A stretch of DNA of 64,000 nt from Steroidobacter sp. (GCA_025929585.1 JAICPY010000006.1:1-64000), one strand, 5' to 3'. Counted from the first letter of the stretch, positions 57,470-60,371 are shown. Translations and numbers: made by a program. The notes: generated by a model not told the origin, from the letters alone.

Positions 57470-57895
57470 CTAGCGCGCGCTAGCGACTGACCGCTCGCGC
57501 TCCTTTGCACGCTCGATCAATAGTTGACCGACGATTTCGCGTGCTTCGTCTTCGGTCAACCCCGGCTGCAGTTCGAAAACTTCGGTCTCATCGAATGGAT
57601 TTGCGAAGAGCGTCGCGTGCGATTCAGCACTAGCGCTTCGCTGCGAGTCCGAATACTTATAGTGCACGCCCATCACACAGCCCAAGATGATCGCCAAGCC
57701 AAGAGCGCCAGCCATGCGCTTCGCAAGTAGCGACATCGCGGTAGGAGCAACGTGCGCTGGGTGCGTCAAGGAAGGAAGTGCTGGGCCGTCCGGGGATTCT
57801 CGGCCAGCCGTGGGCTCGGGCGTTCTCATCGGTATGGCTAGAGGAAACGGCACTCCCGCGCTAGCCTGATCGGAAAAATTCTCTCCATGCGCCAT
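57470..57895 (-). CDS. Membrane-anchored protein, paralog A (NPFDE-EVFEL C-terminal motif)
   Basis: One TM; C-terminus ANPFDETEVFELQPGLTEDEAREIVGQLLIERAKERERSVASAR. Confidence 0.75.
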   Translation of the reverse strand: MAHGENFSDQASAGVPFPLAIPMRTPEPTAGRESPDGPALPSLTHPAHVAPTAMSLLAKRMAGALGLAIILGCVMGVHYKYSDSQRSASAESHATLFANPFDETEVFELQPGLTEDEAREIVGQLLIERAKERERSVASAR

Positions 57896-57938
57896 GCGAC
57901 ACCTCGTTAGCTCGTCAAGCTAAACGATGCTGGCGAGC

Positions 57939-57999
57939 TCTCCAATGGAGTTATGTAATCAAGAGCTCACTGAATGCAAGTAACGTGATTTGAATCACG
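57939..57999 (-). promoter_or_regulatory. Promoter region of paralog A: CGTGA-N6-TCACG dyad and TTACATAA/TCCATTGGAGA block
   Basis: CGTGATTTGAATCACG at 57984-57999 and TCTCCAATGGAGTTATGTAA at 57939-57958; both recur at the same offsets upstream of paralog B. Confidence 0.6.
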
Positions 58000-58175
58000 C
58001 TACGGCGAGTCGTTAACGTTCGCCACGTCCTCTAGTCGACTGCTTGATTGCGACGTGCGCGACGAAGTTCCTAGGGTCATCGACTCAGCATTACGGTCGG
58101 TTGGTACTTCGGTCCGATTCTCTGCTAACCAATCCATGGCGCACCCTTCTCCTCAGCCGATAGGAGTGGATTGTT

Positions 58176-58637
58176 ATGGAACAGCGATCAGAGTACGCAA
58201 ACCAGGATTCGACACTGACCATTCGCTCTCGGGCGGATCTACGATTGCTCGGCCCGTACCATCGCGCCACGGGACGCAGGATCAGGGACATCAAGCTAGT
58301 CATACCTAGCCAGCCGCCCGCGGACGTCGAAGCGAGGCAATCGCGGCTCAAGCAATTGATGTTTGCATGCGGCTGCGGCGAAGCCACAGCCTTCGGGATC
58401 ATCGCTGCCGTTGGATTCGTCACTTATTTGTTCTTGCATACGGGCATCGGTCGATGGTCATGGATGGATCTCGCGCGTCTTTTGTTGGTGTTCTTCTTAG
58501 CTTCCGGGCTTGGCAAATGGATCGGACGCTCGCGAGCAAAACAAGCCCTGCGGCGGGAAATCCGGGATCTTGAAAGATTTTTTCCGGAAGAGCCGCCTTC
58601 CGGGCCACGTGTGCCCTGCGCAGTCGGACATCGCTAA
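58176..58637 (+). CDS. Small membrane protein (153 aa) with CGCGEA motif
   Basis: Two hydrophobic segments: ACGCGEATAFGIIAAVGFVTYLFL and WMDLARLLLVFFLASGLGKWIG. Confidence 0.7.
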   Translation: MEQRSEYANQDSTLTIRSRADLRLLGPYHRATGRRIRDIKLVIPSQPPADVEARQSRLKQLMFACGCGEATAFGIIAAVGFVTYLFLHTGIGRWSWMDLARLLLVFFLASGLGKWIGRSRAKQALRREIRDLERFFPEEPPSGPRVPCAVGHR

Positions 58638-58662
58638 CTGAGAATGGAGCAAGGAGATCACC

Positions 58663-59616
58663 ATGTCGCTCGAGGTATGCGTCGACTGGGCCGAGGAAAG
58701 TTACGAGGAATGCTCGGAGTGGGCCGATCAAGGTTACAGCGCCTGCGATGATTGGGATGATCGTTGCTGCGATTGGTGGCCTTGCTCTTGGGCTTGCAAG
58801 ATCATCACCTGGGTTTGCGTTGGGTGGGTATGGGTATCGAACGTCGTGTGCGTCGCGTGGACGACGATCGTCACCGTCGTGTGCGTCGCATGGGAAGTCG
58901 TTACGGTGATTCTCACACCGATCACCTGGCTCATCGAGGTCATCCTCTCCATCCCCATCATCGGACGATTGATTGGCGAGCTGATCAATCTCGGTACGAG
59001 CATCATCTGGCGCATTGTCGGCCTTGCCGATGCGGTGCTGACGATCATCGGCATTCGGCCGCTGAAGAAACTTCGCGTGTGTATCATCATTCTGCGCGAT
59101 GAAAGAGGCTCGGCGACAAGCTCCCAAACCATCCTGCAGCCCCAGATCGACGCGGCTCGGCAGATTTTTCGCGAGCAAGCCAACATCGAGTTGCTCGTCG
59201 AAGCCATACACACGGTGGATGATCCCAGCCCCACTCACTCGCTCGATGTGGAATGCAATGCCGCCGCTTGGGGTGAGGATCTGTGGTTACCTGGCACCTA
59301 TTTCGGAACGACTAGTGCGTGGCAGTGCCCCACAGGCGGGCTTGGACGCATCACAGGATTTGCAAACCCCGTCGTGGTCTTCTGCGTCCGCAACATTCCC
59401 GGGAGCACTGCGGGTTGCGCACTCGGACCGTTGACGGACTATCTAACGATCGAAGGCCAGAACCCGATCTGCCTCGCACACGAGATCGGGCACAAGGTGG
59501 GCCTATGGCACTGCTGCGATGGGACCAACCTTGCGAATGGCACGTGTGGCGGCACGCAGCTGGATTGGTGGCAGATTACGATCGCGCGTAACTCGGAGTT
59601 CGTGACCTATATCTGA
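58663..59616 (+). CDS. CxxW hendecad-repeat membrane protein with C-terminal metzincin-like metalloprotease motif
   Basis: CVDWAEESYEECSEWADQGYSACDDWDDRCCDWWPCSWACKIITWVCVGWVWVSNVVCVAWTTIVTVVCVAWEVV; HEIGHKVGLWH at 59479-59511. Confidence 0.82.
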   Translation: MSLEVCVDWAEESYEECSEWADQGYSACDDWDDRCCDWWPCSWACKIITWVCVGWVWVSNVVCVAWTTIVTVVCVAWEVVTVILTPITWLIEVILSIPIIGRLIGELINLGTSIIWRIVGLADAVLTIIGIRPLKKLRVCIIILRDERGSATSSQTILQPQIDAARQIFREQANIELLVEAIHTVDDPSPTHSLDVECNAAAWGEDLWLPGTYFGTTSAWQCPTGGLGRITGFANPVVVFCVRNIPGSTAGCALGPLTDYLTIEGQNPICLAHEIGHKVGLWHCCDGTNLANGTCGGTQLDWWQITIARNSEFVTYI

Positions 59617-59643
59617 TGCCGCTCGGTTGAGCGGCAGATGGAC

Positions 59644-59719
59644 CGTTGGCGGTTGACGGTTGACAGCAGGAGGCGGGCGATCTTTCCGGCCGTCAACTGC
59701 CAACAGTCAACCGTCAACA
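59644..59719. repeat. Inverted tandem-heptamer element F
   Basis: Left GTTGGCGGTTGACGGTTGACAG; right (rc) GTTGACGGTTGACTGTTGGCAGTTGACGG. Confidence 0.88.
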
Positions 59720-59726
59720 CCTTCAA

Positions 59727-60266
59727 TCAACGCGCGCTACGCTGCCGCGCACGTTCAATGAGAAGGTCGGCCACGATAGCGCGCGCTTCGTCTTGGCTCA
59801 GACCGGGAGCCAACTCGAAAACTTCACTCTCATCGAAAGGATTTCGATAGAGAGTGGGCGGTGCGGGCGCCGGCTCTTCTTCTTCGACGACTTGCGCCGG
59901 TCTTTCAGGCAGCGGTGTCCATGCACGAGTGGCAATTTGGGCAGGCGGCTCGGAGCTCGTGAATGTGTAGTGCGCGCCTAAAGCAATGCTTCCGACAAGC
60001 GCAATACTGAGCACGCCGATCATGTGCAGTTTGTACGATTGGATCGTCGTTCGAGCAGCAAGGTGTGGCGCAGCTTCGACCGAGGCCGGCTGCTGCCGTA
60101 GTGCCCTTACGACCCCTACTGACGTCTCAGTATTTCTCTGAGCGTGTGAATCTGCGACTGGCGAAGCCACGCCTAATAGGTCCGCAGCACTCAACTCGGC
60201 CAGATCGGCAGCGCTCAGCTCCACTTCCGGTATCACTTCCATCGACGGGTGGTCCTCAGACTTCAT
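59727..60266 (-). CDS. Membrane-anchored protein, paralog B (NPFDE-EVFEL C-terminal motif)
   Basis: One TM (MIGVLSIALVGSIALGAHYTF); C-terminus RNPFDESEVFELAPGLSQDEARAIVADLLIERARQRSAR. Confidence 0.75.
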   Translation of the reverse strand: MKSEDHPSMEVIPEVELSAADLAELSAADLLGVASPVADSHAQRNTETSVGVVRALRQQPASVEAAPHLAARTTIQSYKLHMIGVLSIALVGSIALGAHYTFTSSEPPAQIATRAWTPLPERPAQVVEEEEPAPAPPTLYRNPFDESEVFELAPGLSQDEARAIVADLLIERARQRSAR

Positions 60267-60310
60267 TGCACACCTCTCTCAACCGAGCAACCTAGTCGAT
60301 CTATACGCGA

Positions 60311-60371
60311 TCTCCAATGGACTTATGTAAATCGTCTCAGGTTGATTTGCCGGAGCGTGAGCCCGGTCACG
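60311..60371 (-). promoter_or_regulatory. Promoter region of paralog B: CGTGA-N6-TCACG dyad and TTACATAA/TCCATTGGAGA block
   Basis: CGTGAGCCCGGTCACG at 60356-60371 and TCTCCAATGGACTTATGTAA at 60311-60330. Confidence 0.6.

What the first reader, a model, noticed from the sequence alone, without database searches (positions are those of the whole stretch)
57470..60371. Candidate undescribed module: CxxW-hendecad metzincin-like protein plus small membrane protein, bracketed by two co-regulated paralogs
Seen: two plus-strand genes (58176-58637 and 58663-59616, 25 nt apart) lie between two minus-strand paralogs (57470-57895 and 59727-60266) sharing NPFDE[ST]EVFEL[QA]PGL[TS][EQ]DEAR[EA]IV..LLIERA[KR][EQ]R. 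All four products have hydrophobic, membrane-type segments and one carries a protease-like motif. Inference: a cell-envelope system in which the HExxHxxGxxH protein acts on or with the partners, the NPFDE tail being a candidate interaction or cleavage motif. I know of no characterised system with this composition.
Basis: partly seen in the sequence, partly recalled or inferred. Interest (0 to 1): 0.85.

Follow-up and report, generated by a model that had tools for sequence, protein, structure and literature searches.

The report
Membrane-anchored metalloprotease with obligate partner
Two neighbouring bacterial genes make a metal-dependent protease carried on an unusual 11-residue-repeat membrane stem and a small membrane protein that accompanies that stem in every unrelated genome where we found it; the pair belongs to no described family, and the two look-alike genes around it are only bystanders.

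Summary
In detail: ORFs, 25-nt spacing, NPFDE paralogs, CxxW hendecads and the HExxHxxGxxH motif are as described. The four-gene interpretation fails. NPFDE-tail genes are ordinary genus genes (10 of 13 congeners have one; none of those has the metzincin) with a conserved CRP-type promoter, and are absent from the other genomes tested that carry the two plus-strand genes. The two plus-strand genes do form a real, undescribed module. Eleven loci (Pseudomonadota, Bacteroidota, Armatimonadota and a Bacillus cereus plasmid) pair a CxxW-head zincin protein with the small CGC, two-TM partner on the same strand, in either order. Leave-one-out profiles recover all 11 partners (E 6e-13 to 2e-31). Each of the ten chromosomal genomes has exactly one partner gene; a genome with a headless relative has none. 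Catalytic domains differ (three zincin types) and head/catalytic combinations are shuffled, so the partner follows the head, not the protease. Neither head nor partner matches Pfam, NCBIfam, PADLOC or PHROGs. Best explanation: head and partner form a membrane assembly holding an interchangeable zincin effector at the membrane. Pairing and modularity are shown; complex formation, proteolysis, topology and role are inferred.

The parts
58176..58637 (+). Partner gene, 153 aa: small N-terminal alpha/beta part, membrane-interface CGC motif, two-TM helical hairpin with conserved GK..G
   Evidence: ORF; AF2 mean pLDDT 78 with helices 67-89 and 96-133; invariant C65 G66 C67 K114 G117 L125 in 11 homologs; recovered by leave-one-out profile, E=2.4e-23
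58663..59616 (+). Head-zincin gene, 317 aa: CxxW-hendecad head plus C-terminal reprolysin-like domain
   Evidence: ORF; Pfam Reprolysin_5 E=1.2e-7; five homologs in genome contigs; Foldseek to reprolysin/ADAM/PAPP-A folds, best E 2.6e-4
58678..58767 (+). Acidic soluble hendecads of the head (CxxW at residues 6, 17, 28)
   Evidence: AF2 helix 3-32
58765..58815 (+). CCDWWPC Cys/Trp junction between soluble and membrane hendecads (residues 35-51); C35, W38, C45 and W50 are invariant in the seven-sequence alignment
58816..58932 (+). Hydrophobic hendecads (CxxW at residues 52, 63, 74); also visible as a 33-nt DNA repeat
   Evidence: (D2, spacing 33); AF2 helix 41-95
58933..59067 (+). Second hydrophobic helix (IPxxGxLI...N), linker to the catalytic domain
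   Evidence: AF2 helix 98-128; invariant I97 P98 G101 N109
59065..59613 (+). Zincin (reprolysin-like) catalytic domain with C140, C198, C222, C252 invariant in the seven-sequence alignment
59479..59511 (+). HEIGHKVGLWH zinc-binding motif (residues 273-283)
57470..57895 (-). NPFDE-tail paralog 1, a genus gene; bystander, not part of the module
59727..60266 (-). NPFDE-tail paralog 2, a genus gene; bystander, not part of the module

Best explanation
Genes 58176-58637 and 58663-59616 encode a self-contained two-component membrane protease module. The larger protein has a head of CxxW 11-residue repeats that run from a soluble acidic stretch into a hydrophobic membrane stretch, followed by a zinc-metalloprotease (zincin) domain. 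The smaller protein is a two-TM hairpin with an invariant CGC motif at the membrane interface. Most likely the small protein binds the head, stabilises or inserts it, and the two assemble in the cytoplasmic membrane; the head (probably an oligomer packed along its Cys/Trp face) places the zincin domain at the membrane, where it cleaves membrane-proximal or incoming proteins. The catalytic domain is the exchangeable effector; head plus partner is the constant device. Shown: existence, pairing, gene-order freedom, modular shuffling, patchy spread. Inferred: physical complex, oligomerisation, proteolytic activity, topology, conflict or stress role. The NPFDE genes are not involved.
For: Pairing: partner next to the head gene in 11 of 11 loci, same strand, upstream in 6 (gap -17 to 29 nt) and downstream in 5 (9 to 467 nt). 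All 11 partners recovered by leave-one-out profiles, E 6e-13 to 2e-31. Each of ten head-bearing genomes has exactly one partner; the genome with a headless homolog (G379) has none. A partner search of 395 genomes of the class of G062 finds only G062 itself, where it sits beside the head gene. No third gene is shared between flanks beyond generic SDR/ABC-like families. Partner tracks the head: catalytic types differ (Reprolysin_5-like; longer Matrixin-like in L026/L051; M6-like HEAGHMFGNVDEY in L052), and L007 combines a head closest to L024/L051 (distance 0.52/0.55) with a catalytic domain closest to window/L003 (0.49/0.49). Membrane: continuous hydrophobic head and two-TM partner. Zincin: Pfam, Foldseek.
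Against: No experiment. AF2 of the large protein is weak (pLDDT 66.7; residues 283-304, after the zinc motif, below 50). The Met-turn Met is Ala in the window and its three nearest homologs, and third-ligand spacing is irregular in L007 and L014, so activity may be lost in some members. Mirror-tree correlation of the partner with the head (r=0.49) is barely above that with the catalytic domain (r=0.45), so the claim that the partner follows the head rests on shuffling and on few headless homologs. Only 11 loci, two of them (L004, L005) sharing one ancestral locus. Genome searches score only a limited number of candidates per genome, so frequencies are lower bounds.
Confidence: 0.55

Rival explanations
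1. Protease plus dedicated inhibitor or immunity protein: the small protein protects the producer from the zincin.
For: Tight two-gene linkage in either order resembles effector-immunity pairs; a metzincin with a TIMP-like partner is known in Listeria (PMC8235301); zincin domains occur as toxins in polymorphic toxin systems (PMC3482391).
Against: One partner family serves three different catalytic types, and the headless homolog has no partner: an inhibitor should follow the catalytic domain. The partner's conserved residues lie in its membrane part.
Confidence: 0.15
2. Pore-forming or membrane-perturbing head with a holin-like partner, the protease serving to activate it (conflict or abortive infection).
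For: Weak Pfam similarity of the partner to Phage_holin_3_6 (E=0.012, below cut-off); long hydrophobic hendecads exceed one membrane crossing; patchy distribution, a plasmid copy and one copy beside McrBC-like and IS genes.
Against: No PADLOC match and no significant PHROGs match; no phage or viral-contig homologs in several searches; most copies sit among metabolic genes.
Confidence: 0.15
3. Thiol/disulfide or metal device: the partner CGC motif forms or isomerises disulfides in the Cys-rich head and zincin domain, maturing an exported protease.
For: Invariant CGC in all 11 partners; invariant head cysteines C28, C35, C63; catalytic-domain cysteines 198/222/252 invariant in the seven-sequence alignment, while the headless homolog has a single Cys.
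Against: L026 has no Cys in its last 190 residues yet has a partner; the partner has no thioredoxin-like fold and no PDB relative. Compatible with the best explanation rather than exclusive of it.
Confidence: 0.1
4. Four-gene cell-envelope system with the NPFDE tail as interaction or cleavage motif.
For: Physical bracketing in this one genome and the shared promoter element of the two paralogs.
Against: NPFDE genes and the pair occur apart: 10 of 13 congeners have NPFDE without the metzincin, and the other tested genomes with the pair have no significant NPFDE gene.
Confidence: 0.02

Closest known systems
Reprolysin/ADAM-type metzincins (Pfam PF13688 Reprolysin_5; MEROPS M12B-like)
   Same: Zincin fold, HExxHxxGxxH, Foldseek matches to PAPP-A, ADAM and venom reprolysins
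   Different: Fused to an N-terminal CxxW hendecad membrane head; no signal peptide evident by eye; Met-turn Met replaced by Ala in the window clade; accompanied by a CGC two-TM partner
mtz-tim pair of Listeria (PMC8235301)
   Same: Adjacent metzincin plus small membrane-associated protein acting at the envelope
   Different: There a secreted metzincin cleaves a TIMP-like lipoprotein, phage-derived; here the protease itself is membrane-stemmed, the partner is a two-TM protein, and no phage link was found
Polymorphic toxin systems with zincin domains (PMC3482391)
   Same: Constant N-terminal module with variable C-terminal zincin and an adjacent small gene; the L052 catalytic domain matches Streptomyces plasmid proteins annotated with EndoU and glutaminase-type domains
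   Different: No secretion-system or RHS context seen; only zincin C-termini seen; the adjacent gene follows the constant N-terminus, not the C-terminus
Hendecad coiled coils (general class; own knowledge)
   Same: 11-residue periodicity over several repeats, predicted helical
   Different: CxxW in each repeat, and one repeat type crossing from acidic soluble to hydrophobic sequence; no described family was found in the searches done, though a survey of hendecad families that I recall is not held

Membership tests
Metzincin (reprolysin-like) protease | HExxHxxGxxH/D zinc motif | tested here: met
   HEIGHKVGLWH, residues 273-283
Metzincin (reprolysin-like) protease | Zincin/reprolysin fold | tested here: met
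   Pfam above cut-off (32.6 vs 27 bits); Foldseek PDB prob 1.00, E 2.6e-4, on a medium-confidence model
Metzincin (reprolysin-like) protease | Met-turn methionine | tested here: not met
   TNLAN in window, L003-L005; NLM/NVM in L006, L007, L014, L024. Therefore called metzincin-like, not a canonical metzincin
Metzincin (reprolysin-like) protease | Zinc-dependent proteolysis | not testable with these tools
   -
Effector-immunity pair | Partner specific to the C-terminal toxic domain | tested here: not met
   Same partner family with three zincin types; none with the headless homolog
Effector-immunity pair | Toxicity relieved by partner | not testable with these tools
   -
Phage holin / lysis module | Homologs in phages or lysis cassettes | tested here: not met
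Known anti-phage defence system | Match to a PADLOC model | tested here: not met
mtz-tim type metzincin/TIMP pair | Partner is a TIMP-like lipoprotein | tested here: not met
   Partner is a two-TM helical protein with no fold match
Hendecad coiled coil | Significant 11-residue periodicity without strand prediction | tested here: met
   Offset-11 self-identity exceeds all 2000 shuffles in window, L003-L006 and L052; AF2 helical. Weaker in L007, L014, L024, L026, L051

The most novel reading that the evidence does not exclude
Head plus CGC partner is a previously undescribed membrane device, an oligomeric CxxW-hendecad stem assembled by a dedicated two-TM factor, that serves as a general platform for membrane-tethered zincin effectors in horizontally moving conflict or stress modules across at least four phyla.
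Probability: 0.3. Interest if true: 0.8.

Novelty: new variant of a known kind. Interest (0 to 1): 0.6.

Why it matters
It defines two protein families (the CxxW-hendecad membrane head and its CGC two-TM partner) that the family libraries searched do not contain, and gives a clear, testable rule: the partner goes with the head, whatever protease hangs from it. If the head is a hendecad helix running from water into the membrane, it would be a natural test case for how 11-residue coiled coils cross membranes, and a new way to hold a protease at the membrane.

Tried and rejected
NPFDE genes as module members. Phage or viral origin: plasmid and phage tblastn and five viral-contig scans gave only the B. 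cereus plasmid for the full protein or head. Defence-system membership. Contractile-injection or secretion context: the ten window proteins checked were metabolic, regulatory, transport or hydrolase families or unmatched. PDB relatives of the partner: none. Viral fold library for the zincin: nothing below E 0.016. A mirror-tree test does not separate head from catalytic domain. Composition does not mark the module as foreign: GC 57.6 and 58.2% against 57.9% for the window. Literature: nothing found in the held library for CxxW repeats or membrane hendecads with a metzincin; a hendecad survey that I recall is not held.

Full report
WHAT WAS CLAIMED AND WHAT IS THERE. The four ORFs are at the stated coordinates. 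58176-58637 and 58663-59616 lie on the plus strand 25 nt apart; 57470-57895 and 59727-60266 lie on the minus strand and share the NPFDE tail, 26 of 38 positions identical. The CxxW hendecad is statistically real: self-identity at offset 11 is 30, against a mean of 10.4 and maximum of 22 in 2000 shuffles, with CxxW starting at residues 6, 17, 28 (acidic, soluble) and again at 52, 63, 74 (hydrophobic). The large protein's C-terminus is a reprolysin-like zincin (Pfam Reprolysin_5, 32.6 bits against a cut-off of 27; Foldseek to PAPP-A, ADAM and venom reprolysins, best E 2.6e-4, on a model of mean pLDDT 66.7). Unusually for a metzincin, the Met-turn Met is Ala (TNLAN) in the window and its three nearest homologs.

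THE NPFDE GENES ARE BYSTANDERS. The tail occurs twice in this genome, both times here. Ten of 13 congeners have one such gene each (and one genome of another genus has two), while the metzincin was found in none of the 60 genomes searched apart from the window's own. In the five congeners inspected the NPFDE gene sits among unrelated genes. In five other genomes and one plasmid that do carry the plus-strand pair, the tail profile finds only chance-level matches or none (best E 0.0076 over 17 residues). The gene has its own conserved promoter: a CRP/FNR-like palindrome CGTGA-N6-TCACG whose centre lies 32-33 nt before a T[TG]ACATAA box, upstream of both window copies and of congener copies L046 and L048. 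That spacing fits a class II CRP-type promoter (from general knowledge of CRP promoters; inference). So 'co-regulated paralogs' is right, but they belong to the genus, not to the module.

THE PLUS-STRAND PAIR IS A REAL MODULE. A scan of GTDB species genomes with the large protein found five homologs: a Rhodospirillales MAG, Marimonas, Aquicoccus, an Armatimonadota MAG and Flagellimonas. In all five, translation of the flanks showed a homolog of the small protein next to it, upstream in four and downstream in the Armatimonadota MAG. A Bacillus cereus plasmid has the same pair, overlapping by 17 nt. Profile searches of further groups added G135 (L024), G362 (L026), G922 (L030/L052) and G1257 (L051). 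A partner profile built without L024, L026 and L030 found the partner beside each of them (E 7e-20 to 2e-24), and full leave-one-out recovered all 11 (E 6e-13 to 2e-31). Genome-wide, each of the ten chromosomal genomes has exactly one partner gene, at that locus. In 395 genomes of the class of G062, the only partner found is in G062, next to its head gene. Gene order flips and spacing varies, and no third gene is shared by the flanks beyond generic families. Marimonas and Aquicoccus share one ancestral locus, so there are about ten independent contexts.

THE PARTNER GOES WITH THE HEAD. The catalytic domains fall into three types: reprolysin-like (window, L003-L007, L014, L024), a longer protein with HE[IL]GHY[YF]GL[NC]H and a conserved IM (L026, L051), and an M6-like domain with HEAGHMFGNVDEY (L052). 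L007 combines a head close to L024/L051 (distances 0.52/0.55; 0.62 to window) with a catalytic domain closest to window/L003 (0.49; 0.68-0.77 to L024/L051), which indicates shuffling. A headless relative in G379 (L025), which keeps only the linker and catalytic domain, has no partner anywhere in its genome, and it has a single Cys, lacking the catalytic-domain cysteines conserved in the paired members of its type. A headless relative of the L052 catalytic domain on a Paraburkholderia plasmid has no significant partner match nearby. A mirror-tree test was significant but did not discriminate (r 0.49 for head, 0.45 for catalytic domain), so the argument rests on shuffling and the headless cases.

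MECHANISM. The head is predicted helical (3-32, 41-95, 98-128); in L052 CxxW recurs at 11-residue steps eleven times over one register with one gap, from charged to hydrophobic sequence. The partner is predicted as a small alpha/beta part, a helix, then a two-TM hairpin with CGC at the membrane edge (pLDDT 78); its invariant residues are C65, G66, C67, K114, G117, L125. I therefore propose that the partner binds and stabilises the head in the membrane, and the head displays the zincin there. Shown: pairing, modularity, membrane-type sequence, zincin motif. Inferred: complex, oligomer, proteolysis, side of the membrane, biological role. The rarity (only its own genome among the 60 searched first, 2 of 399 in the phylum, 2 of 298 and 3 of 301 in two families, 1 of 43 in the Armatimonadota search) and cross-phylum spread point to horizontal transfer and an accessory role. 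One copy lies beside McrBC-like and IS genes and one on a plasmid, but most lie among metabolic genes, so a defence role is only a possibility.

NOVELTY. Head and partner match nothing significant in Pfam, NCBIfam, PADLOC or PHROGs or the PDB, and no paper found in the held library describes them. The zincin end is a known kind. I rate the whole as a new variant of a known kind (a modular membrane-tethered zincin); the stronger reading, a new membrane device, is not excluded. A published hendecad survey that I recall is not held and may list the head.

Noticed in passing
57939-57958(-), 60311-60330(-) and about 41 nt further upstream of each: Both NPFDE genes carry a CRP/FNR-like palindrome (CGTGA-N6-TCACG) centred 33 nt before TTACATAA; two congener copies have the same layout, suggesting a genus-conserved class II CRP-type promoter. 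These are the only such palindrome-plus-box sites in the window.
   Followed up: partly
57470-57895(-), 59727-60266(-): NPFDE-tail single-TM family of this genus: N-terminal EVELSA.DL-like motif (clear in the 59727 gene and congeners) and C-terminal NPFD..EVFE..PG...EAR; function unknown, one copy in most congeners but two here.
   Followed up: partly
59640-59722: Intergenic inverted repeat between the zincin gene and NPFDE2 (GTTGACGGTTGAC ... GTCAACCGTCAAC), possibly a REP-like element or terminator (read).
   Followed up: no
L007:1715-4784: The Flagellimonas copy of the module sits next to what look like McrB/McrC-type restriction genes and IS elements (read translations).
   Followed up: no
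L052:8584-9603 and L065:5743-6465: The HEAGHMFGNVDEY-type zincin domain recurs without the CxxW head on a Paraburkholderia plasmid and in Streptomyces plasmid proteins annotated with EndoU or protein-glutaminase domains.
   Followed up: partly
L025:8810-9526: Headless reprolysin-like homolog without the Cys set, partnerless, upstream of a response-regulator-like gene.
   Followed up: partly
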